Positions 34,120 through 57,214 of a DNA stretch of 57,921 nucleotides are shown one piece after another. The first letter of the stretch is position 1, and every line of letters begins with the position of its first letter. Position numbers and translations under genes: made by a program. Origin of the DNA: Candidatus Gastranaerophilales bacterium (lineage in GTDB: Bacteria > Cyanobacteriota > Vampirovibrionia > Gastranaerophilales > Gastranaerophilaceae); NCBI GenBank assembly GCA_944326115.1, contig CALVCQ010000011.1:1-57921 (forward strand), given 5' to 3'. The notes beneath the pieces are model-generated. The model had not been told where the DNA came from. It saw only the letters and a program-made list of their open reading frames with translations, and searched no databases.

Positions 34120-34491
34120 CTATACCACCCTAAAACATTTAAATTCCTTAAAAATCTTCAATCGACCTATTTGAAGAGTGTGCTCCCTAAATACATGAAT
34201 AATCTTGTTAAACTCTAAATAAATTGCAACGTGTAATTCATTTCTGTATCGGGTTACTATAATATCCCCTGCTTGAAGATCAACAGGAGATATTTCTCTG
34301 CAATGCTTTTTTATTTTTGATAAGCCGTAAAAATAATTTTTGTCATCATTTTTACTTCTTAATTTATATCTTGGCTTTTCTGGATATAAAAACTGAACAG
34401 GATAAAAACAACCCTGATAAGTTCCGTCTTCATTAAACATTTTATAAGGTCGTCCTATCTGTTCCTGCAAAGCTTTGATTTTTTCTTCCAT
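34120..34491 (-). CDS. NlpC/P60-like tail protein
   Basis: 123 aa. It has a Cys in YQGCFYPVQFLYP and a His in LHVAIYLEFNKIIHV after the LQAGDIIVTRY turn, the order of Cys and His in NlpC/P60 cysteine peptidases found in lambda gpK-type tail tips. The third catalytic residue is not obvious. It may cut peptidoglycan during entry. It lies directly upstream of the J-like gene, with a terminator-like hairpin upstream. Confidence 0.68.
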   Translation of the reverse strand: MEEKIKALQEQIGRPYKMFNEDGTYQGCFYPVQFLYPEKPRYKLRSKNDDKNYFYGLSKIKKHCREISPVDLQAGDIIVTRYRNELHVAIYLEFNKIIHVFREHTLQIGRLKIFKEFKCFRVV

Positions 34492-35300: not shown

Positions 35301-36236
35301 CTATGCATTTTGAACTATATGCCTCAAATGCGCATAATTATTTTTTATCCCCTCATAAGTAATCTGATTCAATAACTGCTTGTTCTCTATTAAATACCTG
35401 CTGACATCTTTAGAATCCCAGGCTTTTACATTAAACGAGTTTACAATGACGGGAGATGACTCTCTTTGTTTTTCATAATTAACATTTTCGGCAGGACTCA
35501 AAACCCTCTCTCCTCCTTTTAAAAGAGCAAGCTGCTCTTCTGTACCGGGCAGAGAATAATTTGCCCCGTCGGGAACAATTCCTCCGGAGTGGTGTTTTGT
35601 GAATAACGACCCTATAAAACCGAGAGCGCTTTTTGCGGCTCCGCCTCCCCAGTTAAAGAAACTTCCAAACAAACTTGAAACAATATTCATTGTATTTTCT
35701 GAAAAAATATTTTGCATAAGCTTGTCAGTAAACTGCTTTATCATGTAATCAGTAAGACTTGCTGTCATATCCTCCATAACATCGGAAAAATCTTTGTATC
35801 CCCTTATCATATCCTGCAGACCGGAAGAAAATTCAGAAGAAACTTTCTTGCCTGTTTTACCAAGTAGACTGTCCTCGTATGCATTTTCTTTTTCTTCGTC
35901 TTCCAGATAATCAAAACTGCTGTGAAAGTATTCTTTTTGCTCATCAGTAAGAGATTTGTCAGACTCTACACCTTTTCGAAGAAGATTGTATTTATTTGTA
36001 ATATGTTCTTTTTCTTCTGTATAACCGTCATCAAGCAGCGATGCAAAATCAATCTTGTTAGTTTTAACAGCATTGATAAGAGCTTTGTATTCCTGAGTCT
36101 GATTTTTCCAGATTTTTTTAATCTCCTGCATAGCCTGAGCAAACTTTTTGTTCGTCTCGCTCATTTGCTTTTTTGCTTCTTCCAATGCTTTTTCAAATTC
36201 GGTTTGGTAGATTTCTTTATGAATAGTTTTTGCCAT
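35301..36236 (-). CDS. Tail tape-measure protein, short form
   Basis: 311 aa. The C-terminal half looks like the end of lambda-type tape-measure proteins: a helix LMQNIFSENTMNIVSSLFGS, a Gly/Ala hydrophobic stretch, then HHSGGIVPDGANYSLPG and EEQLALLKGGERVLSPAENV. The N-terminal half is coiled coil (TEFEKALEEAKKQMSETNKK). It is short for a tape measure (usually over 600 aa), so it may be a truncated or minimal form. The start (AGAAAGGAATTTTAAATG context) lies 30 bases from the divergent secreted gene. Its first 200 bases are the sequence copied eight times in the array. Confidence 0.72.
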   Translation of the reverse strand: MAKTIHKEIYQTEFEKALEEAKKQMSETNKKFAQAMQEIKKIWKNQTQEYKALINAVKTNKIDFASLLDDGYTEEKEHITNKYNLLRKGVESDKSLTDEQKEYFHSSFDYLEDEEKENAYEDSLLGKTGKKVSSEFSSGLQDMIRGYKDFSDVMEDMTASLTDYMIKQFTDKLMQNIFSENTMNIVSSLFGSFFNWGGGAAKSALGFIGSLFTKHHSGGIVPDGANYSLPGTEEQLALLKGGERVLSPAENVNYEKQRESSPVIVNSFNVKAWDSKDVSRYLIENKQLLNQITYEGIKNNYAHLRHIVQNA

Positions 36237-36266
36237 TTAAAATTCCTTTCTATGTTATAATTAAAT
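36237..36266. promoter_or_regulatory. 30-base divergent control region, prototype of the array
   Basis: On the minus strand it carries the AGAAAGGAA Shine-Dalgarno of the tape-measure gene. On the plus strand it carries a TATAAT box (36,256-36,261) five bases before the ATG of the first secreted gene, so transcription would start at or next to the ATG. The same arrangement (CCTTTC then TATAAT, TATACT or GATAAT, then ATG) recurs before all seven other cassette genes. Confidence 0.75.
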
Positions 36267-36791
36267 ATGCTTAAAAATCTTTTATTGTTTTTATTATTTT
36301 TTTGTTTAACAGGTGTACAAACCTTTTCTTTAACTCTAAAAGGCAGTGCTTCTTATACTGTTGAACGTGCTAAAACTGAAGCGTTTGAAGGGGTTGCTAG
36401 TCATATTAACTTGAGTAATTATAAAGATTTTTTTATTGATAAATATTATGAAAAAAACATTGAAAATGTAAAAAGAGGAAAATATAAATTTAGAACTTAT
36501 TATATTTCTTATTTTCAAAAAGAGGGTTATTGTATTACTTATAGAAGAACTGAAAATATTGGATATTACTACAATTTAGATGGAACTTTGCAATTAATTG
36601 AATTCGCTACGCAAGGAGAATATCCAAGAAGAAGTATCAGATATGATGCCGCTGGAAAATTAGATTCTACAACTTTGATTATTTCTCACAATGAGAGTTA
36701 TGTTTTTGACTTAAACAAAAAACTTATTGCTCACTGGATAGGTAAAAATTGCTACAATGAGCAGGGAGAAATTATTAATACAAGAAAATGA
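36267..36791 (+). CDS. Cassette secreted protein 1
   Basis: 174 aa. The signal peptide LLLFLLFFCLTGVQTFS precedes LKGSASYTVERAKTEAFEG, the family's first conserved block. The middle is variable, with Tyr-rich YRRTENIGYYYNLDGTLQLI and ESYVFDLNKKL strands like YD/MORN-type beta repeats. The end LIAHWIGKNCYNEQGEI closes with INTRK instead of the usual IMTRE. It is exported to the periplasm or surface; no lipobox. It pairs divergently with the intact tape-measure gene and runs against the late operon, so it could be expressed in the lysogen. Superinfection exclusion is a hypothesis. Confidence 0.8.
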   Translation: MLKNLLLFLLFFCLTGVQTFSLTLKGSASYTVERAKTEAFEGVASHINLSNYKDFFIDKYYEKNIENVKRGKYKFRTYYISYFQKEGYCITYRRTENIGYYYNLDGTLQLIEFATQGEYPRRSIRYDAAGKLDSTTLIISHNESYVFDLNKKLIAHWIGKNCYNEQGEIINTRK

Positions 36792-36814
36792 TTTATTTTT
36801 TAAACTTTATTTGA

Positions 36815-36928
36815 TTAATTTATCACCTGAGCAAACTTTTTGTTCGTCTCGCTCATTTGCTTTTTTGCTTCTTCCAACGCTTTTTCAAATTGGCTTTGGT
36901 CTTCATTTGGATTTGTTAATATTGTCAC
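36815..36928 (-). pseudogene. Tape-measure 5' fragment, copy 1
   Basis: 37 codons from a GTG behind GAAAGGAAAT. The variable start peptide MTILTNPNED is followed by the shared QSQFEKALEEAKKQMSETNK and KFAQ, then unrelated codons and a stop. It is truncated about 35 codons into the tape-measure gene. It is divergent from cassette gene 2. Confidence 0.85.
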
Positions 36929-36959
36929 GTCATTTCCTTTCTAATGTTATACTTATACA

Positions 36960-37487
36960 ATGAAAAAAATATTTCTTTTAATACTTTTTATAATGTTTTT
37001 ATTAATGCCTACTCCGATACTTGCCTTTACATTAAAAGCGGGTGTTTCATATTCTGTCAATACTGCTAGAATAGAATCCTTTACAAATATAAAATATAAA
37101 ATTGATATGTCTCTATATAAAGAATTTCTACGAGATAATGATTTTTTAGAAAATAAAAAATTACTATTAAAAAACAAATTAAAAAATAAATATAAAAAAC
37201 TTGTTAAATTTTCTGATGGAAGTTATTCGGTAACATACAAAGATAATAAAAATGTATCATTTTTTTATAATGCTAAAGGTTGTCTTATCTGTATACAATT
37301 TAATATATACACAATAAATTGTAAAAAGAGGTATTCATATGATTCTAAAGGTAATTTCGATGGAGTAATTTTATGTACTAAAAATAATGAGCAATTCATT
37401 TTTGATAAAAATAAAAAATTGGTGGCCCACTGGATAGGCAAAAATTGTTATAATGAACAGGGCGAATTGATTATGACGCGAGAGTAA
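36960..37487 (+). CDS. Cassette secreted protein 2
   Basis: 175 aa. The signal peptide (MKKIFLLILFIMFLLM..., cleavage near PILA) is followed by FTLKAGVSYSVNTARIESF. The middle is the most lysine-rich of the set (LLLKNKLKNKYKKLVKF). The end is the standard AHWIGKNCYNEQGELIMTRE. A TATACT box (36,948-36,953) lies six bases before the ATG, with no Shine-Dalgarno, so the transcript is probably leaderless. Its last codons overlap the next antisense tape-measure fragment. Confidence 0.8.
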   Translation: MKKIFLLILFIMFLLMPTPILAFTLKAGVSYSVNTARIESFTNIKYKIDMSLYKEFLRDNDFLENKKLLLKNKLKNKYKKLVKFSDGSYSVTYKDNKNVSFFYNAKGCLICIQFNIYTINCKKRYSYDSKGNFDGVILCTKNNEQFIFDKNKKLVAHWIGKNCYNEQGELIMTRE

Positions 37488-37584
37488 TCATTTTGTTAGT
37501 TTCGCTCATCTGCTTTTTCGCTTCTTCCAATGCTTTTTCAAATTGGCTTTGGTCGATTTTTTGAATTCTTTCTCCTATATCCAT
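37471..37584 (-). pseudogene. Tape-measure 5' fragment, copy 2
   Basis: 37 codons: start peptide MDIGERIQKI, then DQSQFEKALEEAKKQMSETN, then it runs into the antisense of the 3' end of cassette gene 2 and stops. The joint (after SETNK) is the same as in copies 3 and 4. Ribosome site GAAAGGAAATTAT. Confidence 0.85.
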
Positions 37585-37615
37585 ATAATTTCCTTTCTAA
37601 TGGTATACTTAAACT

Positions 37616-38131
37616 ATGAAAAAATATTTTTTATTTTTATTGTTTGTTTCTTTATTTTTTAGTACAGGATATACATTAAACGGTGGTATATCATATACTG
37701 TCAATCAAGCACGTGAAGTTTCATTTAAGGATGTTCCTAATAGTATAGAAATTAATAAATACAAAAAGTATTTTATAGATAAAAACTACATAAAAAACAA
37801 AGAAGCATTACATAAAAATAAAACTCAATACAAGAATAGGTATTTATCATTATTTTCTAGTGGTTTTTATGCAGTAACATATAAAAATAATACTAATGTT
37901 TCTTATTATTATAATTCAAATAGTAATCTTCAATTAATTGATTTTATTATTGGGAACGACTATCCAAGCAAGCGAGTTGGTTATGATAGCAAAGGGATGT
38001 TAAATTCTGTAACACTTGATGTCTCGGCAAATGAGCAGTTTGTATTTAATAAAAACAAAAAACTTATTGCTCACTGGATAGGCAAAAATTGTTATAACGA
38101 ACAGGGCGAATTGATTATGACGCGAGAGTAA
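37616..38131 (+). CDS. Cassette secreted protein 3
   Basis: 171 aa. The signal peptide YFLFLLFVSLFFSTG is followed by YTLNGGISYTVNQAREVSF, a Tyr/Asn-rich core (YKNNTNVSYYYNSNSNLQLI) and the near-invariant C-terminal AHWIGKNCYNEQGELIMTRE. The TATACT box is at 37,604-37,609, six bases before the ATG. The 3' end and the following antisense fragment are almost base-identical to those of cassettes 2 and 4, while the cores differ, which points to duplication or gene conversion of the cassette ends. Confidence 0.8.
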   Translation: MKKYFLFLLFVSLFFSTGYTLNGGISYTVNQAREVSFKDVPNSIEINKYKKYFIDKNYIKNKEALHKNKTQYKNRYLSLFSSGFYAVTYKNNTNVSYYYNSNSNLQLIDFIIGNDYPSKRVGYDSKGMLNSVTLDVSANEQFVFNKNKKLIAHWIGKNCYNEQGELIMTRE

Positions 38132-38225
38132 TCATTTTGTTAGTTTCGCTCATCTGCTTTTTCGCTTCTTCCAATGCTTTTTCAAATTGGCTTTGGTCTT
38201 TATCATTCTTAAAAATCTCTATCAT
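38115..38225 (-). pseudogene. Tape-measure 5' fragment, copy 3
   Basis: 36 codons: start peptide MIEIFKNDKD followed by QSQFEKALEEAKKQMSETNK and the same run-out (MITLAS) as copies 2 and 4. An in-place Shine-Dalgarno (GGAAAGGAAAATTTTA) remains, so a short peptide could still be made. Confidence 0.85.
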
Positions 38226-38256
38226 TAAAATTTTCCTTTCCATGTTATAATTTGTT

Positions 38257-38778
38257 ATGATTAAAAAATTTTTATTAATATTTCTTTTTTGTTTTTTTAG
38301 TATTCCTGCTATTGCTCTAACTTTAAAAGGGAATGTTTCTTATTCTATAGAACAAGCTAAAACCGAAGCTTTTAAAGGAGTTGCTGTTCATATTGATTTA
38401 AGTAATTATTCTGATTATTTTGTTGATAAAAATTATGTGAAGAATATCAGGAATATAAAAAAGGGAAAATATAAAACAAGAAAATATCTAATTACTTCTT
38501 TTAGTAATGGAAACTATGGGATTTTATATAAAAAAAATAGAATTAGACAGTACTATTATAATAGTAACGGTGAATTAATATACATAGATTTTAATACTTC
38601 AAATAGTTTCCCAAGAAAAAGTGTTAAATATAATATAGAGGGTAAATTAATTTCATCTTCTCTAGATATATCAACAAAAGAAAGCTATGTTTTTGATTCT
38701 CACAAAAAACTTATTGCCCACTGGATAGGCAAAAATTGTTATAACGAACAGGGCGAGTTGATTATGACGCGAGAGTAA
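38257..38778 (+). CDS. Cassette secreted protein 4
   Basis: 173 aa. The signal peptide FLLIFLFCFFSIPAIA is followed by LTLKGNVSYSIEQAKTEAF. Its N-terminal 60 residues are the closest match to protein 1 (both have KTEAF then G, V and a LSNY stretch), so the two are recent relatives although two cassettes lie between them. The C-terminal block is standard. TATAAT box at 38,246-38,251, ATG five bases later. Confidence 0.8.
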   Translation: MIKKFLLIFLFCFFSIPAIALTLKGNVSYSIEQAKTEAFKGVAVHIDLSNYSDYFVDKNYVKNIRNIKKGKYKTRKYLITSFSNGNYGILYKKNRIRQYYYNSNGELIYIDFNTSNSFPRKSVKYNIEGKLISSSLDISTKESYVFDSHKKLIAHWIGKNCYNEQGELIMTRE

Positions 38779-38875
38779 TCATTTTGTTAGTTTCGCTCAT
38801 TTGCTTTTTTGCTTCTTCCAATGCTTTTTCAAATTCGGTTTGGTCTTTGTCTTTATTAAAAGCTATATTCTTCAT
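38762..38875 (-). pseudogene. Tape-measure 5' fragment, copy 4
   Basis: 37 codons: start peptide MKNIAFNKDK, then DQTEFEKALEEAKKQMSETN and the MITLAS run-out. From here to copy 7 the shared part reads QTEF, as in the intact gene, whereas copies 1-3 read QSQF. Confidence 0.85.
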
Positions 38876-38911
38876 AAAAATCCTTTCTATTGCTTATGTT
38901 ATACTATTAAA

Positions 38912-39433
38912 ATGAATAAATTAGTTAATATACTATTTTTTTGCTTAATATGTTTGATAACTACTGCTTTTACCATAAAAGGTGGAATTACATATACTGT
39001 TGATAATGCACGTATTTTAGCTTTTGAAGGAATAAAGCCTCATATTAATACACAGGAATATAAGGCTTTTTTATTTGATAAAAATTTTATACAAAATAAA
39101 AATGCAATAATAAAAAATAAATTAAAATTTCGGGACAGAGAAATTCAAATATTCTCGGATGGCAAATATTCTATATTGTTTAAAAAAAATACTACACGTT
39201 ATTTTATTTATAATACAGATGGTAAACTTGAGATAATAGTTTTTTATGTAAATAACAAATACCCCAAAAAATCAGTTGCCTACGATATTTATGGCAATTT
39301 AAGCTCAATTGCATTTAGTGTAAAAAAGGATGAACAGTTTGTCTTTGATGAAAATAAAAAACTCCTTGCTCACTGGATAGGTAAAAACTGCTACAATGAG
39401 CAGGGTGAGCTGATTATGACTCGTGAGTACTAA
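38912..39433 (+). CDS. Cassette secreted protein 5
   Basis: 173 aa from the ATG at 38,912; a longer in-frame start at 38,801 lies inside the antisense tape-measure fragment and is not supported. The signal peptide LVNILFFCLICLITTA is followed by FTIKGGITYTVDNARILAF. The core is standard (YSILFKKNTTRYFIYNTDGK). The end block finishes IMTREY, one residue longer than the others. TATACT box at 38,900-38,905. Confidence 0.8.
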   Translation: MNKLVNILFFCLICLITTAFTIKGGITYTVDNARILAFEGIKPHINTQEYKAFLFDKNFIQNKNAIIKNKLKFRDREIQIFSDGKYSILFKKNTTRYFIYNTDGKLEIIVFYVNNKYPKKSVAYDIYGNLSSIAFSVKKDEQFVFDENKKLLAHWIGKNCYNEQGELIMTREY

Positions 39434-39524
39434 ATTTCGTCTCACTCATTTGCTTTTTTGCTTCTTCCAGAGCTTTTTCAAATTCGGTTTGGTCAATGAT
39501 AGTAATGTAATTGTCTTTTGTCAT
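39414..39524 (-). pseudogene. Tape-measure 5' fragment, copy 5
   Basis: 36 codons: start peptide MTKDNYITII, then DQTEFEKALEEAKKQMSET, cut after SET, one to two codons earlier than in copies 2-4, running into KFSTHES and a stop. This joint with the preceding gene is different from the others and so marks a separate recombination event. Confidence 0.85.
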
Positions 39525-39555
39525 TATAGTTCCTTTCTATGCTATAATTTAATTT

Positions 39556-40086
39556 ATGCAAAAGTTTATATTCTTTTTTTGTTTTTGTTTGCTTATTCAA
39601 AGCCAGGTATGTGCGTATACATTAAAAGCAGGTGTCGTATATACAATAGAAATGGCTCGGATAGAAGCTTTCGATGATGTTCCTCTAAAAATAAATATAG
39701 ATAAATACAAAAATTATTTAATAGACCCTAATTATTCTAAAAATATTTCTGCAATAAAAATAAACAAATACAAATTCAGAAATAGATATTTAACTTATTT
39801 TTCAAATAATCAATATGGTGTAACCTATAAAAATAATACAAAAATCGGTTTTTATTATGATATGAATGGCAAATTATGTGATATTAGTTTGTTAATGAAT
39901 GAAAAATATCCAATAAAAATAGTTAAATATGATATATTAGGAAATTTAGTGTCAACATCTCTAGCAATTTCACATGATGAAAGTTTTGTGTTTGATTTAA
40001 ATAAAAGACTTATTTCTCATTGGATTGGTAACAACTGTTATAATGAACAAGGCGAATTGGTAAAAAGGCGATACAACAATAAGTAA
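39556..40086 (+). CDS. Cassette secreted protein 6
   Basis: 176 aa. The signal peptide FIFFFCFCLLIQSQVCA is followed by YTLKAGVVYTIEMARIEAF. The C-terminal block is diverged at both the protein and DNA level: SHWIGNNCYNEQGELVKRRY and four more residues, so this copy escaped the end homogenisation seen in cassettes 2-5 and 7. TATAAT box at 39,543-39,548, seven bases before the ATG. Confidence 0.8.
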   Translation: MQKFIFFFCFCLLIQSQVCAYTLKAGVVYTIEMARIEAFDDVPLKINIDKYKNYLIDPNYSKNISAIKINKYKFRNRYLTYFSNNQYGVTYKNNTKIGFYYDMNGKLCDISLLMNEKYPIKIVKYDILGNLVSTSLAISHDESFVFDLNKRLISHWIGNNCYNEQGELVKRRYNNK

Positions 40087-40093
40087 ATTATCT

Positions 40094-40213
40094 TTAATAT
40101 TGCATAGCCTGAGCAAACTTTTTGTTCGTCTCGCTCATTTGCTTTTTTGCTTCTTCCAACGCTTTTTCAAATTCGGTTTGGTCATTTTTATAATTTTGTT
40201 TTAATATTGTCAT
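40094..40213 (-). pseudogene. Tape-measure 5' fragment, copy 6
   Basis: 39 codons: start peptide MTILKQNYKN (sharing MTIL with copy 1), then DQTEFEKALEEAKKQMSETN and KKFAQAMQ before the stop. It keeps more of the tape-measure gene than copies 1-5. Confidence 0.85.
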
Positions 40214-40254
40214 TTTATGTTCCTTTCTGTTAAAAAGTATGATAATGTTAATTA

Positions 40255-40773
40255 ATGGTTAAATATTTTTTTATAATTATTTTTGTTCTGGCTTTTCTAT
40301 ATACATCAGGATTTACATTACAAGGTGGTATAAATTATACGGTACAATCAGCAAGAGTTGAGTCTTTTGACAATATTACTTCGCAAATTAATATCGCTAA
40401 ATATAAAAAATTTTTTCAGGATAAAAATTATAATAATAATCTTATTCTTATGAATAAAGGTATTCGTTATTATAAAGATAGGTACATAACATCATATTCT
40501 GATGGGGAATATACAATATGTTACAAATCGAATAAAAAAAATTCTTATCATTATAATATAAATGGAAAACTAATCGGTATTTCAATAAATCAAGGTAAAG
40601 GTTTTCCAAGTAAACGTATAACTTATGATTCAAATGGTAATTTTGACTCTGTTACTCTTGATGTTTCAAGAACAGAACAATTCATTTTTGATAAAAATAA
40701 AAAATTAGTAGCTCACTGGATAGGTAAAAACTGCTACAATGAGCAGGGAGAACTCATTATGACACGAGAGTAA
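40255..40773 (+). CDS. Cassette secreted protein 7
   Basis: 172 aa. The signal peptide YFFIIIFVLAFLYTSG is followed by FTLQGGINYTVQSARVESF. The end is AHWIGKNCYNEQGELIMTRE. The upstream box is the least typical: GATAAT at 40,241-40,246, or TATGAT three bases earlier; the gap to the tape-measure start is also longer (41 bases). Confidence 0.78.
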   Translation: MVKYFFIIIFVLAFLYTSGFTLQGGINYTVQSARVESFDNITSQINIAKYKKFFQDKNYNNNLILMNKGIRYYKDRYITSYSDGEYTICYKSNKKNSYHYNINGKLIGISINQGKGFPSKRITYDSNGNFDSVTLDVSRTEQFIFDKNKKLVAHWIGKNCYNEQGELIMTRE

Positions 40774-40955
40774 TCAATCTTGTTAATCTTAACAGCATTG
40801 ATAAGAGCTTTGTATTCCTGAGCCTGATTTTTCCAGATTTTTTTAATCTCCTGCATAGCCTGAGCAAACTTTTTGTTCGTCTCGCTCATTTGCTTTTTTG
40901 CTTCTTCCAGAGCTTTTTCAAATTCGGTTTGGTCATAAAAATTTGAATTAGACAT
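40734..40955 (-). pseudogene. Tape-measure 5' fragment, copy 7 (longest)
   Basis: 73 codons: short start peptide MSNSNFY, then DQTEFEKALEEAKKQMSETN and continued near-identity with the intact gene through KKIWKNQAQEYKALINAVK and NKID, before ending antisense inside cassette gene 7. It shows that the copied unit is truly the tape-measure coding sequence rather than a short motif. Confidence 0.88.
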
Positions 40956-40987
40956 ATAATTTCCTTTCTAATGTTATAATTTACTAT

Positions 40988-41506
40988 ATGAAAAAAATTT
41001 TTATAATAATTAATGTAATTATTGCTTTTGTTTTGTGTACAGGTTTAACAATAAATGGTGGAATTTCTTATAGCGTAAGTTCTGCCAGAGAAATTTCTTT
41101 TGATAATATTCAAAATAGAATTGATACTAAAAAATATAGTCTTTATTTTTACGATAAAAATTACAAAAGTAATATTAAAGCAAGATATAAAAATAAAAAT
41201 AAATTTGCAAATAGATATTTAACATTTTTTTCTGACGGCTGTTATGGCATTATATACAAAAGAGATAAAAATACTGGATATTATTATAGTGGGAAAGGGG
41301 TACTTGAATATATTGAAATATCATATTCAAAAGAATTCCCTAAGAAGTTTGTTAAATACAATTTGGATGGTAATATTGACTCAGTTTCTCTATGGGTATC
41401 AAGTAAAGAGCAATTTATTTTTAACAAAGATAAATCATTGCAAGCTCATTGGGTAAATGAAAATAAATATAATTCTAAAGGGGAGCTTATTGATAAACGA
41501 AAATAA
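40988..41506 (+). CDS. Cassette secreted protein 8, most diverged
   Basis: 172 aa. The signal peptide IFIIINVIIAFVLCTG is followed by LTINGGISYSVSSAREISF. The core is recognisable, but the C-terminal block has drifted to QAHWVNENKYNSKGELIDKR. TATAAT box at 40,975-40,980, seven bases before the ATG. As the copy farthest from the intact tape-measure gene and next to the most decayed fragment, it may be the oldest cassette. Confidence 0.78.
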   Translation: MKKIFIIINVIIAFVLCTGLTINGGISYSVSSAREISFDNIQNRIDTKKYSLYFYDKNYKSNIKARYKNKNKFANRYLTFFSDGCYGIIYKRDKNTGYYYSGKGVLEYIEISYSKEFPKKFVKYNLDGNIDSVSLWVSSKEQFIFNKDKSLQAHWVNENKYNSKGELIDKRK

Positions 41507-41518
41507 CTACAATTTTGC

Positions 41519-41640
41519 AATTTCCAGCTTTTTTTAATCTCCAGCATAGCCTGAGCAAACTTTTTGTTCGTCTCGCTCATTTGCTTTTTTGCTTCTTCCA
41601 ATGCTTTTTCAAATTAGGTTTGGTAGATAGATTCTAACTT
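41519..41640 (-). pseudogene. Tape-measure 5' fragment, copy 8 (decayed)
   Basis: It contains the shared FEKALEEAKKQMSETNKKFA sequence but has an in-frame stop just before it (TAA where QTEF has Glu), and no start codon or Shine-Dalgarno remains. No secreted gene follows on its other side; instead repeats D and B begin. It closes the array. Confidence 0.8.
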
Positions 41641-41690
41641 ATAGATGTTTTATACATTGATAATATTTATTATGTAAATATTGTCATCCT

Positions 41691-41766
41691 GAGGAGCGAA
41701 GCGAGCTCAGGATCTTACCGGTTTGAGATTTGCATATCAAATTGGTAAGATTCTGAACACAGCACT
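41691..41766 (+). repeat. Repeat D, partial copy
   Basis: TTGTCATCCTGAGGAGCGAA begins a half copy of a palindromic element whose fuller copies are at 46,181-46,306 (reverse) and 49,046-49,172. It includes the GGATCTTACC...GGTAAGATTC inverted pair and stops after CTGAACACAGCA. Confidence 0.75.
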
Positions 41767-41776
41767 ATCTTTTCAT

Positions 41777-41948
41777 ATTGTCAACTGACTCCGACTACTT
41801 GTTGAACCTGTGCAATAAGCAAGTTCAATATTTAACAATAAGTCCGGCACAGTCAACAAGCGCATGGGGTCACTTCCGTAAAATGCTAGACTCGGCGCCA
41901 CTCGCACTCCGTGTACCACTCCTACAAGCGAGGTCCCACTCAGACAAT
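41777..41948 (+). repeat. Repeat B, short form B3
   Basis: 172 bases from ATTGTC to GACAAT, the same length as and nearly identical to the copy at 56,388-56,559 that interrupts the lysozyme gene. This appears to be the minimal complete element: a left hairpin module, a short joint (CACTTCCGTAAAATGC) and a right module (GACTCGGCGCC ... CCCACTCAGACAAT). Confidence 0.85.
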
Positions 41949-42221
41949 TTAATGACATGTTTTAAAACAGCAGGGGCTACGGGGGCAGCACGCCACTGTT
42001 GTAACCTTGATTAGAAACAGTTGTGTTTTGAGGCAATTTTTACAACAGTCTGCCGCTAAAAAATTGCCGTTGAAAAATACAGTAAATATTCAGAACAAAT
42101 TTCGCATCCACAAGGTCTGAAAAAATTCATTGTGAATATCAACTGTATTTAAACAAAGTTACAACAGCAGAAGCGTTTTCCTTTCATGTACTGCTTCGTT
42201 GCTAATTAAATTGCTCCGGAA
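41949..42221. other. Non-coding stretch after repeat B3
   Basis: No gene is seen. A GC-rich segment near 41,968-42,003 (CAGGGGCTACGGGGGCAG) resembles the CAGGGGCGTGCCGCCCCC hairpin near 45.7 and 46.1 kb. The remainder is AT-rich. Confidence 0.45.
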
Positions 42222-42466
42222 TCATCTCATCCTCATAACAATATCACTCAATGCTCTCAATGCATTTTTTCCTACAAGGACTTCTGGCTTTGGCTTTTCA
42301 TTCATGATATTTCTTATCTGAACATATTTATACAAAACAGCAAAGTATTTTCGAGGCGTTGCAGTCCAAAAATCACTGTCACTCCACCCCCAAAAACACA
42401 ATGCTGTTGTGTATGCACCCAGCCAGTCAAAATTTTCCGGTTCTGAATTATTCTCTATTTCTTCTT
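42222..42466 (-). CDS. Frameshift extension of the tail assembly chaperone (gpGT-like)
   Basis: An open frame of about 80 codons in the -1 frame begins at the A-rich end of the chaperone gene and has no start codon of its own before its conserved part. Its product reads EEIENNSEPENFDWLGAYTT, then ALCFWGWSDSDFWTATPRKY and FAVLYKYVQI. The W.G and DFW.ATPRKYFALL-like motif is typical of the second domain of tail chaperones. The slip site in the zero frame is TTA AAA AAA AAG, which contains the A-AAA-AAG heptamer. The fusion would run from 42,835 to 42,222. Confidence 0.75.
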
Positions 42467-42835
42467 TTTTTTTAAAGTCTGCTTTTTTCCGGCACCTCTT
42501 TCTTTTTGAAGAATTTCAGGAGGAGTCAACGGCTCAACAAAAGCAAGTGTTATCGCACCAATATTCTGTAAAAACAAAAATTTCTTTTCATTGAGCGCAA
42601 TTCTTGCTTTTGCAATTTCGCCTTCTGTATGATTTTTTAGCATTGCACAGCAGGCTACTTCGATACAATCACTGTATTTTAGATTGTTTCTTGCAATAAA
42701 ATCTTCATAAATACGAAAAATTCCCTTGCCGGTCAGCTGCTCAAGCTCAGCATAAGCCTTGTTGTCATATTCAAGAGTATAACTCTTGCCTTCAAGTTCA
42801 ATTTTGTAAGGTTTGTTCATAATGTCTTTAATCAT
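42455..42835 (-). CDS. Tail assembly chaperone (gpG-like)
   Basis: 126 aa with an AGGAAAGG ribosome site. Small and mostly helical after the YKIELEGKSYTLEYDNKAYA beta hairpin, then ELEQLTGKGI, as in gpG-type tape-measure chaperones. It ends in a run of lysines encoded by the slippery A-tract. In lambda-like phages the short form and a -1 frameshift product bind the tape measure and recruit tail tube subunits. The tape-measure gene should follow directly, but here 6 kb of repeats and cassettes lie between. Confidence 0.75.
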   Translation of the reverse strand: MIKDIMNKPYKIELEGKSYTLEYDNKAYAELEQLTGKGIFRIYEDFIARNNLKYSDCIEVACCAMLKNHTEGEIAKARIALNEKKFLFLQNIGAITLAFVEPLTPPEILQKERGAGKKQTLKKKKK

Positions 42836-51446: not shown

Positions 51447-51977
51447 TTATTTAGTCTTTTTAAAATACAATTTTTTCCCCTGATTATAAACATAGGTAAT
51501 ATCATCATCAATTATCGAGTTAAAAACCTGAAAATTACGATAGCCGTCAGTTTTTTTTAAGAGAATACAAACAGGATGTCTTACATCAAAATATACTTCT
51601 TCACCGGTAATTTCTTGATATACACCTTTGCTGTTTTTTTGCAAAACATACAACAGCCAGCTTCCGTTACCGTTTTTGAAGGAGGAATAATGCGTACCTA
51701 TAACTTCATCCTCTCCGTCGGAGTTTAAATCAAAAAAGGCTGCAGCACAGTCTCTTTTGTAAATATTATGAATAGCTGCATTAGCTTCTGTCAGCCGTAT
51801 CTGACGCAGCAGCCAGTTCCACAATATCTCGGAAGCACTGTCCTGACCGGTCATTTCCTGTAAATCAATACAGGCTCTCGGTATATCAAAAGCCAAGCCA
51901 GCGCAAACTACGCTGCAATACAGGATCAAGCTGAAAACCGCTCTGGTTATTATTGATTTCAATTTTTTCTTGTTCAT
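51447..51977 (-). CDS. Secreted protein with DxNxDG calcium-like loop, paralogue 1
   Basis: 176 aa from the ATG at 51,977 (or seven codons longer). A signal peptide (IITRAVFSLILYCSVVCAGLA) precedes a helix (ASEILWNWLLRQI) and a FFDLNSDGEDEVIG loop with a following beta strand (GSWLLYVLQKN). The same order (W/F-helix, D.N.DG..E.IG, strand ending in IL/VL.K) is found in the genes at 56,684 and 57,239. Its start lies inside the LprI-like gene (about 90-base overlap). It could be the periplasmic partner of the effector-like gene upstream; that is inference. Confidence 0.65.
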   Translation of the reverse strand: MNKKKLKSIITRAVFSLILYCSVVCAGLAFDIPRACIDLQEMTGQDSASEILWNWLLRQIRLTEANAAIHNIYKRDCAAAFFDLNSDGEDEVIGTHYSSFKNGNGSWLLYVLQKNSKGVYQEITGEEVYFDVRHPVCILLKKTDGYRNFQVFNSIIDDDITYVYNQGKKLYFKKTK

Positions 51978-52407
51978 CATCGGGGAAAGTCTGTACATAA
52001 TACATTCTCAAAGATTGTGCACGATTTTTTATCAAATCTCTTTTCTGCGCAGCACGAAACATTACTCTCTCTTTTGTTTCATTGTCTTTATCCTGCAGTG
52101 CATCTAAGACACCGTATTCTTTATTTTTGTACATATTCCAGTATTTTTGGTCATCATATAGAGTCTGTTTTGCATTGTCGGGAAATTTTTTGTAAAGAAG
52201 AGAATAATATTTATCGACTTCACCTGTCCACGCATTAGCGGCTTTCAGCGTGCACCTTGTCCACTCATCAAGTGTCTTTGCTTCTGCTTTACAGGCACTT
52301 TCCTTTGCATCTATCGGGTGGACAAAAGCCTGTTCGGCAAACGCACTTTGGCAAAAACAAAGACACGAGAACAAAGTTATGCATAAAAAATCTTTAATTC
52401 TAATCAT
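51886..52407 (-). CDS. LprI/DUF1311-type lysozyme inhibitor-like secreted protein
   Basis: 173 aa. The signal peptide FLCITLFSCLCFCQSAFA is followed by the DUF1311/LprI pattern: CKAEAKTLDEWTRCTLKAAN, then W..EVDKYYSLLYKKF and the L.DDQKYWNMYKNKEYG segment. Mycobacterial LprI, the founder, inhibits lysozyme. It lies 53 bases downstream of an effector-like gene and near an interrupted lysozyme gene, so immunity against a muramidase is plausible. The C-terminus overlaps the next gene. Confidence 0.72.
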   Translation of the reverse strand: MIRIKDFLCITLFSCLCFCQSAFAEQAFVHPIDAKESACKAEAKTLDEWTRCTLKAANAWTGEVDKYYSLLYKKFPDNAKQTLYDDQKYWNMYKNKEYGVLDALQDKDNETKERVMFRAAQKRDLIKNRAQSLRMYYVQTFPDDEQEKIEINNNQSGFQLDPVLQRSLRWLGF

Positions 52408-52460: not shown

Positions 52461-53306
52461 CTAATCGGGTCTGGTTCTGTAATAACTTTTAACTTTTGTT
52501 CCATCTGCTCTGGAATAAGAATTAACAAAAACCATGCCGGCATCGGCAGCCTGTTTGTTTGTTGGTATACCTATTGTTTTGCTCTGGTATTCTATAGCTT
52601 TTTTATTCGCATTGATTTCTTCCTGTGACATATTATTTATAGCTTCTTTTGTGTATATTTTATTTGATTTTGTTACTTCATTTATGTAATTGGCATAGTC
52701 AGCTTTTGTATCAAAATTGTTATTTAAATATACGTTATAAGATATACCTGTTTTTAAAATATTATTCCCGGCTTCCCCTGTAGTTTTTATGGCTTTTTCA
52801 GGTGAAAAGTTTGTCAATTTCTTATTTTTATCTGCTGTATATGCTTTTAAGTAATATGTATCTATTTGCTCCTGAGAGGGTGTTTTATTATTTGCCCATA
52901 ATTTTTCGGATACGGACTGCACTGCTTTTTCACTGGCAAACTCTATAATACGACCACAAGCTTTATTTCCAAAATATGATCCAATTCCTCCACCTAAAGT
53001 GGCTCCTGTACCTACTGCATTAATATTACCTAATGTAGTACCAACAGTAGCTCCAATCTCTGTTCCAACCAGCATACCAATTGAGATACATTCTTCTGTT
53101 GTCGCAAAACTAATACTTTCTCTTAATACTGCACCAGTACCAAGTTCAAAATAAATCATTTGTTCTATTTGTTTTGTGCTATATCCTTTTTTTAGTAATT
53201 CGTTATATCATTTTTTAATATATTTTTTATTATAATTGCTTTCTTTTTTAATTTTTTTACCAGGTTTTATTATACTGTTATAATATTTACCAACTTGTCT
53301 CAACAT
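52461..53306 (-). pseudogene. Effector-like protein with glycine-zipper and shared C-terminal domain, in-frame TGA
   Basis: The ATG at 53,306 has a GGAG site and the frame stays open to 52,461 except for a TGA at 53,208-53,210 (codon 33), in the context IKK-stop-YNELLKKGYS. The internal start at 53,159 has no ribosome site. After the stop come a membrane-inserting Gly-rich segment (EIGATVGTTLGNINAVGTGA) and a helical middle. The C-terminal 75 residues (IYTKEAINNMSQEEINANKK, KTIGIPT, SYSRADGTKVKSYYRTRPD) are shared with two other proteins here. A nonsense mutation from TGG is the simplest reading. Confidence 0.7.
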
Positions 53307-55428: not shown

Positions 55429-56595
55429 CTACCCTCTCGGATAAGACCTGTAATAATCCTCAACTTTCCTTCCGTCACCGGTTGTGTAACCTGATACATG
55501 CACCATTCCGCTGCCTTTTTTAGCAGCTGTTTTTTGTGCCTGTGATTTTGTCGGGATTCCTATTGTTTTTCTTTGATATCTTATTGCTTTTTCATTCTTT
55601 TGATATTCTGAACGGGACATTTTTTCTATTTCTTCTTTTGTAAATATCCTGTCATTTTCCAGATGCGGATTTTTGTAGTCTTTTGGAATTTCTCCGCTAA
55701 ATCTTTTATCTATTGCATCTGATTCCATGTATATTTTGTTTGTAAAGTCTTTAAGTTTTTGGTACTGGTTATCCAGCATATTTTTTAATGTTTTTCCTGT
55801 TATCTTTGGAGTATCTTTGCTGGTTGTGTTTTTGCTGCTGCTTTTTAGCATTGATTCGTATAACATATCCTGATATCTCTGTAATTTTTCATCATTATCT
55901 TTTTGAAGTTGTTTTAGTAAATTATTATCTGTTACACGCTTTATTGGATTAATATTAAAATAATTATCGTAATCCAAACTGTCTAATCTGTTTTTTAATT
56001 TATTTATTCTATTCGACCAGCCTTTTCCAAAACTGGCACGATTCTTATCAGTTGAATAATTATCCAACCTAAGTTCAAGATATTTGTCCAAATTGCCATT
56101 TGATTTTTTCACAAGTCTGCTATTTACCGGATTACCGAGATTAACTTCTCCATCAAAAGCAGCCAGTGCCATTTTCTTCGACATTTCAGGCTTAACAGCC
56201 TTTAACCAATAATCTTCATAATATATTTTTTTTGCTTCTTCTTTAGTGAGATTTTTTACATTATTTTTAGGCAAATTTTTTCTTATTCTGTATTTATCAT
56301 ATGTATTTTGCGTTATACCCATGTTCGTAGCCCTTCCAGGGTCATTAGGATGGTTAACATAACCACCCTCAATTTCAAATTTTTCATATTGTCAACTGAC
56401 TCCGACTACTTGTTGAACCTGTGCAATAAGCAAGTTCAATATTTAACAATAAGTCCGGCACAGTCAACAAGCGCATGGGGTCACTTCCGTAAAATGCTAG
56501 ACTCGGCGCCACTCGCACTCCGTGTACCACTCCTACAAGCGAGGTCCCACTCAGACAATATAATCCATAGCTTCATCAAAAAAATCTTCTTTCAT
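55429..56595 (-). pseudogene. GH108-type lysozyme with shared C-terminal domain, interrupted by repeat B
   Basis: The ATG at 56,595 (AGAAAGGATTTT site) opens MKEDFFDEAMDYIV and hits TGA inside a repeat-B copy. On the other side the same frame resumes YEKFEIEGGYVNHPNDPGRA, then TNMGITQNTYDKYRI, the GH108 catalytic region with its Glu. Removing 174 bases restores one frame. The enzyme domain (about 150 residues) is followed by a coiled-coil linker and the C-terminal domain IFTKEEIEKMSRSEYQKNEK, KTIGIPT, GYTTGDGRKVEDYYRSYPRG. An internal start at 56,322 lacks the catalytic Glu. Confidence 0.8.
56388..56559 (+). mobile_element. Repeat B copy inserted in a lysozyme gene
   Basis: 172 bases from ATTGTC to GACAAT, nearly identical to 41,777-41,948. 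The codon TAT (or the dinucleotide AT) is duplicated on both sides, as after a target-site duplication, and deletion of the element rejoins a GH108 reading frame. No transposase is encoded, so it is a non-autonomous, MITE-like element moved by an unknown enzyme. Confidence 0.75.
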
Positions 56596-56683
56596 AAAAT
56601 CCTTTCTTTAATTAAACAGATAAAGCCACAAATATGCAGCTTTACCTGTATTTTCTACAAAATTATAACAATTTGTTTTTTAG

Positions 56684-57214
56684 TTAAAATTCCAGAATTT
56701 GAACATACTCTTTTTGGGAGTATCTATGCCAAAAATATAAGTTTATGTTTTTATGTCCTTGTTTTTTTATATCACTTACAATATCAATTCTGTGAATACC
56801 GGAATATTGTTGTTTTTCGTAAATATTTATATACTCGTCCCCCTGTTTTTTGAGTATAAAAAATGCACAAAATTCAGTTCCGCAATAAGGCGTTATTTCG
56901 TACGAACCGATTATTTCGTCAACACCGTCATTATCAATATCATTAGCCAGCGCCCATAAAACATCTTTATACAATTCAGGGTAGCCCGTTTCACCGTCTT
57001 CTTTAGTATAAGTATACTGTTTGATATCTTTGTTTAAATATTCAAATAAAATATCTTTTGCTTTGCTATCGGCTTCTCTTAAATCTTTTATATTATAAGA
57101 TTCAATGTCAAATACTCTTCCGTTGATATCAATATATCCGTTAAAACATAAAAAACCGACAATGGTAAAAACATACAGAAATATAAATAAAATTGTTAAT
57201 GTTCTTTTTTTCAT
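56684..57214 (-). CDS. Secreted protein with DxDxDG loop, paralogue 2
   Basis: 176 aa. An N-terminal signal or anchor helix (TILFIFLYVFTIVGFLCF), a helix AKDILFEYLNKDI, then LANDIDNDGVDEIIGSYEI and a YCGTEFCAFFILKKQ strand. Two Cys in YCGTEFC match the Cys pair of paralogue 3. It lies just upstream of the interrupted lysozyme gene on the same strand. Periplasmic partner or immunity protein is a guess from context. Confidence 0.65.
   Translation of the reverse strand: MKKRTLTILFIFLYVFTIVGFLCFNGYIDINGRVFDIESYNIKDLREADSKAKDILFEYLNKDIKQYTYTKEDGETGYPELYKDVLWALANDIDNDGVDEIIGSYEITPYCGTEFCAFFILKKQGDEYINIYEKQQYSGIHRIDIVSDIKKQGHKNINLYFWHRYSQKEYVQILEF

What the first reader, a model, noticed from the sequence alone, without database searches (positions are those of the whole stretch)
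36237..41640. An array of eight secreted-protein genes, each divergent from a copy of the tape-measure gene start
Seen: eight paralogous genes for exported proteins (171-176 aa) stand head to tail on the plus strand. In front of each lies a reversed copy of the 5' end of the tape-measure gene: the intact gene for cassette 1, fragments for cassettes 2-8, and a ninth decayed copy ends the array. The secreted genes run against the late operon and carry their own promoter-like box, so they could be expressed in a lysogen. Known: some prophage periplasmic proteins (Ltp of phage TP-J34, gp15 of HK97) block entry of related phages and act through the tape measure. Inference: each cassette is a tape-measure start with its cognate exclusion protein, and the array collects exclusion genes as incoming phages recombine at the tape-measure start, a polarised record of past phages with the youngest next to the intact gene.
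Basis: partly seen in the sequence, partly recalled or inferred. Interest (0 to 1): 0.95.

Follow-up and report, generated by a model that had tools for sequence, protein, structure and literature searches.

The report
Tape-measure-start cassette array with secreted proteins
In a phage-like element of uncultured gut bacteria (Gastranaerophilales), the start of the tail tape-measure gene has been copied over and over, each copy paired with its own exported protein, forming an exchangeable row of cassettes that looks like a stockpile of immunity genes against related phage-like particles, although that function has not been tested.

Summary
Eight exported-protein genes (SEC1-8, 171-176 aa) alternate with nine reversed starts of the tape-measure gene (TMP): one intact, seven short copies with ribosome site and start codon, one start-less remnant. 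Each start has its own first 8-12 codons (leader) followed by a nearly identical block. The pattern recurs in other Gastranaerophilales, with local TMPs and either SEC orientation: 26 of 29 TMP genes with sequenced flank have a SEC gene within 150 bp of their 5' end. SEC and its TMP-side leader travel as a pair between genomes (0 of 5000 within-array shuffles match). Window cassettes 1, 3, 5 and 7 occur elsewhere with the same leader. Arrays with different contents end in the same remnant. Interior SEC genes are under purifying selection (dN/dS 0.06-0.13) and have their own leaderless promoters. Best reading: exclusion or immunity cassettes against kin particles, in the same slot as HK97 gp15, organised like a mirror image of CDI/Rhs orphan toxin-immunity arrays. 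Exclusion is inferred. The element looks vertically inherited and GTA-like, so "record of infecting phages" is probably a record of kin variants.

The parts
35301..36236 (-). Short tape-measure-like protein (311 aa), intact; leader MAKTIHKEIY pairs with SEC1
   Evidence: PHROG tape measure E=2e-5 over its C-terminal half
36267..36791 (+). SEC1, exported protein 174 aa; 98% identical to the SEC of genomes G322 and G305, which have the same TMP leader
36833..36928 (-). TMP start copy 2 (GTG start, leader MTILTNPNED), pairs with SEC2
36960..37487 (+). SEC2, 175 aa
37490..37584 (-). TMP start copy 3 (leader MDIGERIQKI), pairs with SEC3; same leader type in G239 (MDIEKRIKKI)
37616..38131 (+). SEC3, 171 aa; 72% identical to a SEC of G239
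38134..38225 (-). TMP start copy 4 (leader MIEIFKNDK), pairs with SEC4
38257..38778 (+). SEC4, 173 aa
38781..38875 (-). TMP start copy 5 (leader MKNIAFNKDK), pairs with SEC5; in G005 this leader (MKNITFNKDK) heads the intact TMP
38912..39433 (+). SEC5, 173 aa; 88% identical to the TMP-proximal SEC of G005
39435..39524 (-). TMP start copy 6 (leader MTKDNYITII), pairs with SEC6
39556..40086 (+). SEC6, 176 aa
40094..40213 (-). TMP start copy 7 (leader MTILKQNYKN), pairs with SEC7; also a displaced copy in G005 (MTILNQNYRN)
40255..40773 (+). SEC7, 172 aa; 85% identical to the distal SEC of G005
40772..40955 (-). TMP start copy 8, the longest fragment (leader MSNSNFY, about 73 codons open), pairs with SEC8
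40988..41506 (+). SEC8, 172 aa
41507..41650 (-). Terminal start-less TMP remnant (..YKLESIYQT*FEKALEEAKKQ); the same remnant ends the arrays in L098, L099 and L101
42455..42835 (-). Tail assembly chaperone-like protein (Phage_TAC_11 / GTA-gp10), upstream neighbour in the late operon
   Evidence: E=8e-5, below Pfam's cut-off
34120..34491 (-). NlpC/P60 tail protein, downstream neighbour of the TMP

Best explanation
This is an array of immunity/exclusion cassettes built on the start of a tape-measure gene. A cassette is one exported SEC protein plus the 8-12-codon leader of the TMP start on its TMP side. A new cassette enters by homologous recombination through the conserved TMP block (and the conserved SEC 3' end). 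It gives the intact TMP a new leader and pushes the old start, with its SEC, away from the TMP. The displaced TMP start is cut short, but the displaced SEC keeps its own leaderless promoter and stays expressed. Inferred function: SEC proteins sit in the periplasm and block tape-measure and DNA entry by particles of the same family carrying the matching TMP, so the array gives protection against several kin variants. Shown: architecture, recurrence, pair-wise exchange, purifying selection, promoter signature, fixed distal end. Inferred: periplasmic location, expression, TMP contact, exclusion.
For: (a) A SEC gene lies within 150 bp of the 5' end of 26 of 29 TMP genes with flank. In the arrays the SEC boundaries carry copies of the local TMP start, even where TMP starts of different species are not alike. 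(b) SEC genes group by TMP class rather than by genome: class I (SEC co-directional) 23 rows, support 100/99; class II (divergent) 21 rows, 97/93; four genomes carry both classes. (c) For 59 class-matched cross-genome pairs with SEC bodies at least 70% identical, mean leader identity is 0.54, against 0.20 for 678 other pairs; 0 of 5000 within-array shuffles reach it. Mantel tests agree. (d) Window cassettes 1, 3, 5, 7 are found in other genomes with matching leaders. (e) dN/dS of orthologous SEC pairs, interior ones included, 0.06-0.13. (f) 34 of 35 SEC genes have a -10 hexamer 3-9 nt before the start codon; 6.8 expected. (g) Same distal remnant in arrays with 8, 1, 1 and 2 cassettes. (h) HK97 gp15, a superinfection-exclusion gene, lies between tail gene 14 and the TMP with a terminator, the class I SEC position; gp15 and Ltp exclusion is overcome by tape-measure or tail changes (PMC10883804; PMC3952083). 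(i) In a gene transfer agent the tape measure is ejected into the periplasm (PMC7296036).
Against: No functional or binding data. Leader-SEC linkage is also what physical linkage over about 30-100 bp would give. One pair breaks it (L106/L113: SEC 92%, leader 22%). Two G137/G154 loci gave no significant test. SEC relatives are ordinary chromosomal genes in most of the order (297 of 383 genomes), and in three distant relatives the SEC-like gene is beside a DUF2460 tail gene instead of the TMP. The model shows a small beta-meander of no informative fold. TMP identity rests on weak profile hits and position.
Confidence: 0.52

Rival explanations
1. Duplication scars around a moron. SEC genes serve some envelope function of the host cell and were expanded by unequal crossing-over; the TMP starts are bystander homology that marks the unit boundary, and leader-SEC linkage is plain hitchhiking.
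For: SEC has chromosomal paralogues across the order, for example beside rplT. Leader and SEC are neighbours, so linkage needs no function. Tandem repeats invite unequal crossing-over.
Against: SEC clades follow TMP class within the same genome. The association arose with unlike TMP starts and in two orientations. Leaders differ while the adjacent block is homogenised. Short TMP ORFs mostly keep ribosome site and start.
Confidence: 0.28
2. Immunity against a harmful activity of kin particles (membrane-active tape measure or co-delivered toxins) rather than exclusion of their DNA; the array is a stock of immunity genes as in CDI/Rhs loci.
For: The element also carries toxin-like proteins: a lipase-domain protein (L058) and a lysozyme-like protein (55429-56322), the latter with an LprI-type lysozyme-inhibitor gene nearby. 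Array layout is that of orphan immunity arrays (PMC3150448).
Against: The toxin-like genes lie elsewhere in the element, not beside SEC. The 8-12-residue leader is too short to be a toxin domain.
Confidence: 0.12
3. A store of alternative TMP N-termini (silent-cassette or shufflon-like switching) in which recombination changes the TMP leader; SEC genes are passengers.
For: Each copy keeps a ribosome site, start codon and in-frame junction to the conserved TMP block, so a deletion between direct repeats would give an intact TMP with a new leader.
Against: All copies are direct repeats, so switching would delete cassettes instead of shuffling them; no recombinase family was found in the element; SEC genes are under clear purifying selection.
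Confidence: 0.06

Closest known systems
HK97 gp15 superinfection-exclusion moron
   Same: Small gene between a tail assembly gene and the tape measure with a terminator before the TMP; [quoted passage not shown]
   Different: Single gene, described as an inner-membrane protein of 62 codons; no array, no copied TMP starts. No SEC relative found among phage records
Ltp of Streptococcus phage TP-J34
   Same: Exported exclusion protein that acts on the tape measure of the incoming phage (PMC3952083)
   Different: Lipoprotein; acts on the C-terminal region of the P008 TMP; single gene
CDI/Rhs orphan toxin-immunity arrays
   Same: Main gene plus displaced truncated gene ends, each with its own small gene; orphan modules of one strain are the active module of another; varying lengths of main-gene homology (PMC3150448)
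   Different: There the variable part is the toxic C-terminus and orphans lack start signals; here it is a short TMP N-terminal leader and copies keep start signals. No toxin is involved as far as seen
Rhodobacter capsulatus gene transfer agent (RcGTA)
   Same: Short tape measure, NlpC/P60 and other GTA-type tail genes (PMC7296036); structural genes without integrase
   Different: DNA packaging not tested; endolysin and toxin-like genes present; location not the same in the window's own genome

Membership tests
Tape-measure-directed superinfection exclusion proteins (HK97 gp15, Ltp type) | Exported or membrane protein encoded by a prophage or phage-like element | tested here: met
   Signal-peptide-like N-terminus in all eight; genes lie inside the element's late region. 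Export itself not measured
Tape-measure-directed superinfection exclusion proteins (HK97 gp15, Ltp type) | Own promoter, independent of the late operon | tested here: met
   Extended -10 hexamer just before the start codon in 34 of 35 genes; transcription not measured
Tape-measure-directed superinfection exclusion proteins (HK97 gp15, Ltp type) | Blocks DNA entry of related phages, with escape mutations in the tape measure | not testable with these tools
   Needs infection or particle-transfer assays
Tape-measure-directed superinfection exclusion proteins (HK97 gp15, Ltp type) | Sequence or fold relationship to a known exclusion protein | tested here: inconclusive
   No significant family or fold match
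Orphan toxin-immunity arrays (CDI/Rhs) | Displaced, truncated ends of the main gene alternate with small partner genes | tested here: met
Orphan toxin-immunity arrays (CDI/Rhs) | An orphan module of one strain is the active module in another | tested here: met
   Cassette 5 is displaced in the window and heads the intact TMP in G005
Orphan toxin-immunity arrays (CDI/Rhs) | The variable end of the main gene encodes a toxin domain | tested here: not met
   The variable part is 8-12 residues
Gene transfer agent | Structural gene cluster without integrase, repressor or replication genes | tested here: met
   No such family in Pfam or PHROG scans of the otherwise unassigned element ORFs of G118, the window and C55; one DnaT-like ssDNA-binding hit is the only DNA-related match
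Gene transfer agent | Vertical inheritance at a fixed chromosomal place | tested here: inconclusive
   Major capsid gene in 10 of 10 sampled genus genomes; same DUF308 neighbour in 9, but that gene was not found in the window's own genome and the other flank varies
Gene transfer agent | Packages random host DNA in small heads | not testable with these tools
   Needs particle sequencing
Shufflon-type invertible cassettes | Inverted recombination sites and a dedicated recombinase | tested here: not met
   All copies are direct repeats; no recombinase family found

The most novel reading that the evidence does not exclude
A heritable, polarised, homology-built memory of exclusion specificities: vertically inherited, GTA-like elements exchange SEC-leader cassettes at their tape-measure starts, so that the leader acts as an identity tag of the particle and the array lists the tags the cell is protected against, with the newest next to the intact tape-measure gene and a fixed remnant at the far end.
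Probability: 0.3. Interest if true: 0.95.

Novelty: new variant of a known kind. Interest (0 to 1): 0.85.

Why it matters
Exclusion genes beside tape-measure genes are known one at a time, and arrays of displaced immunity genes are known for contact-dependent toxins. Here both ideas appear together in phage-like elements of uncultured gut relatives of cyanobacteria. If the reading holds, bacteria can store a list of particle types by simple homologous recombination, without CRISPR machinery, and the paired TMP leader tells which particle each gene is aimed at. That gives an all-against-all test of specificity from sequence alone. It also bears on how phage-like particles recognise and avoid kin. 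No description of such arrays was found in the open papers searched.

Tried and rejected
IMG/VR scan with the SEC alignment found no relative, probably because the single degenerate pattern was narrow; the scan with the capsid protein then gave one viral contig, L121, with SEC directly upstream of the TMP. SEC is absent from the phage record collection at E 0.01. Fold searches gave only weak beta-sheet resemblances (OspA mutants, MORN proteins, Rhs sheets; none with E below 0.001; best VIA-align Z 5.7), so no function was read from them. A sequence profile matched Rhs YD-repeat sheets at 1.5e-6 over about 65 residues; taken as a shared small repeat type, not as Rhs membership. Shufflon-type switching rejected (direct repeats, no recombinase). 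A 'decayed junk' view of the TMP copies was rejected as a general rule, because most keep ribosome site, start and frame; pooled dN/dS of TMP starts was 0.10, but this does not prove selection on the fragments, since the alleles may have diverged while still part of an intact gene or have been converted by it. Papers on gene transfer agents in Melainabacteria or on Gastranaerophilales prophages: nothing relevant. The HK97 gp15 paper itself is not held; its content is cited through a later paper.
Full report
WHAT IS THERE. The window is contig C11 of a 2.15-Mb draft genome. Named relatives are metagenome-assembled Candidatus Gastranaerophilales. On the minus strand it carries a phage-like late region: portal, capsid, tail tube, terminase, tail assembly chaperone (42455-42835), a 311-aa tape-measure-like protein (TMP, 36236-35301), NlpC/P60 and J-like tail proteins. 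Between chaperone and TMP lie eight exported-protein genes (SEC1-8) on the plus strand, and between them reversed copies of the TMP start. Nine copies of the conserved TMP block are present: 92% mean nucleotide identity over 51 nt, against 62% for the SEC bodies.

REFINED ANATOMY. Reading each copy in the TMP direction gives ribosome site, start codon, a leader of 8-12 residues unique to the copy, the shared block (D-Q-[TS]-[EQ]-FEKALEEAKKQMSETNK), then a stop at varying points. Copies 2-8 have a start (GTG in copy 2); the ninth has none and carries a stop. The SEC genes have no ribosome site; a -10 hexamer, usually with the extended TG, ends 5-8 nt before the ATG. Over 35 SEC genes from several arrays, 34 have this against 6.8 expected from shuffled sequence. 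Leaderless transcripts are therefore likely; this is inference from sequence.

IT RECURS. The same genome has a second array on contig C55 (L010): a different TMP (332 aa) with SEC in the same direction as the TMP, preceded by another TMP-start copy and the end of another SEC. In related genomes, arrays of 8 (G154), 4 (G137), 3 (G118 twice, G072) and 2 (several) SEC genes were found. In the arrays inspected with a local TMP, the spacers carry copies of that local TMP's start, although TMP starts differ strongly between species. One spacer in L058 (16 bp) and those of L067 (6 and 13 bp) have none. Of 29 TMP genes with enough flank, 26 have SEC within 150 bp of the 5' end; the exceptions are two genus-g18 genomes and one viral contig, where a distant SEC-like gene lies elsewhere. 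A viral contig (L121) has the standard arrangement. Array sizes in drafts are minimum values, because many contigs end inside arrays.

CASSETTES MOVE AS PAIRS. In both orientations, the interval between two successive TMP blocks holds one SEC and one leader. SEC genes of the two TMP classes form separate clades even within one genome. Across genomes, similar SEC genes have similar leaders: 59 pairs with SEC bodies at least 70% identical have mean leader identity 0.54, against 0.20 for 678 other pairs; no within-array shuffle in 5000 reaches this (pairs are not independent). Examples: window cassette 1 (MAKTIHKEIY) is 98% identical to the SEC of G322 and G305 with leader MAKTIHKEID, but beside a TMP followed by a DUF2460 tail gene; cassette 3 matches G239; cassettes 5 and 7 match G005. 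In G005 cassette 5 heads the intact TMP; in the window it is displaced behind four further cassettes. One pair (L106/L113) has similar SEC and unlike leaders.

POLARITY. G005 keeps the order 5 then 7 from the TMP outward and lacks 1-4. The far end of the window array is the same start-less remnant (..KLESI..QT.FEKALEEAKKQ) that ends arrays in L098, L099 and L101, which contain other cassettes. A leader of the KLESI type is the intact TMP leader in L101 (MAYKLESIDD). This fits insertion between the TMP body and an old start. Loss in G005 instead of gain in the window is not excluded, and comparisons among other species show reordering as well.

SELECTION. Orthologous SEC pairs, including a cassette displaced in both genomes (SEC7), have dN/dS 0.06-0.13, like the TMP (0.13) and other tail genes. 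Displaced SEC genes are therefore kept functional. Near-identical copies within L058 give 0.25-0.39.

THE ELEMENT. Pfam and PHROG scans of the otherwise unassigned ORFs of the G118 element and the window show head, tail, endolysin, MuF-like and ankyrin proteins but no integrase, repressor or replication families. The capsid gene is present in 10 of 10 sampled genomes of the genus, and the element borders the same DUF308 gene in nine of them, but that gene was not found in the window's genome. TMP-associated tail genes are of GTA type (TAC_11, DUF2460, BR0599-like, NlpC/P60). A domesticated, GTA-like element is likely but not proven. Several elements carry two TMP genes, each with its own SEC genes.

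WHAT SEC IS. AlphaFold2 gives a confident model (mean pLDDT 91): short helices and a meander of about ten strands. No informative fold match. The family occurs in 297 of 383 genomes of the order, mostly in one to three copies; the two chromosomal copies examined in the window's genome lie among ordinary genes, one beside rplT. SEC was probably recruited from the host family, or the reverse.

MECHANISM. The TMP and an exported protein can meet only when an incoming particle ejects its tape measure into the periplasm, as described for RcGTA. HK97 gp15 and TP-J34 Ltp are exclusion proteins that act through the tape measure, and HK97 gp15 lies in the same slot as class I SEC genes. I therefore infer that SEC proteins exclude, or protect from, kin particles, and that arrays widen the range. 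The layout is the mirror image of CDI/Rhs orphan arrays: the exchangeable piece is the N-terminal leader of the structural protein, not a C-terminal toxin. Steps shown: layout, recurrence, paired exchange, selection, promoter signature, shared distal end. Steps inferred: export, expression, binding, exclusion, specificity by leader.

VERDICT.

Noticed in passing
window 52461-53159 and 55429-56322; L058:13036-14190; L010:408-1094: Proteins with different N-termini (class 3 lipase, glycosyl hydrolase 108, glycine-rich) share a C-terminal motif like GMVxVxGYTRxDGTxVKxYYRxxP. They look like polymorphic effectors, with candidate inhibitors nearby (LprI-like 51886-52407; three similar small membrane proteins at L058:11740-13022).
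   Followed up: partly
G118:C11 (L060, L061), G154:C13 (L058, L077), G000 C11 and C55: Elements appear to have two tape-measure-like genes, one beside NlpC/J and one beside DUF2460 or portal, each with its own SEC genes.
   Followed up: partly
L009:5305-5838 (contig C43) and L011:4683-5255 (contig C2): Chromosomal SEC paralogues among ordinary genes, one between a biotin ligase and rplT and conserved as a clade in the genus; a possible host partner or source of the element's SEC family.
   Followed up: partly
window 41778-41958 and 56308-56853: A stretch of about 170 bp is repeated in two places (both read ...STDSDYLLNLCNKQVQYLTISPAQSTSAWGHFRKM... on the plus strand), one just beyond the distal end of the array.
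   Followed up: no
window 41685-41720; L061 and L060 spacers: A dispersed repeat (GTCATCCTGAGGAGCGAAGCGAGCTCAGGATCTT type) lies next to the array end in the window and seems to follow the TMP fragments in G118 and G171 arrays (peptides ending CHSEAS); it may mark or promote the junctions.
   Followed up: no
SEC genes in all arrays examined: Extended -10 box directly before the start codon without ribosome site, suggesting leaderless mRNAs in this lineage; the two chromosomal SEC genes checked show a similar but weaker signal.
   Followed up: yes
L060:14252-18919 (G118): A 1556-aa protein of unknown family inside the element, upstream of the terminase genes.
   Followed up: no
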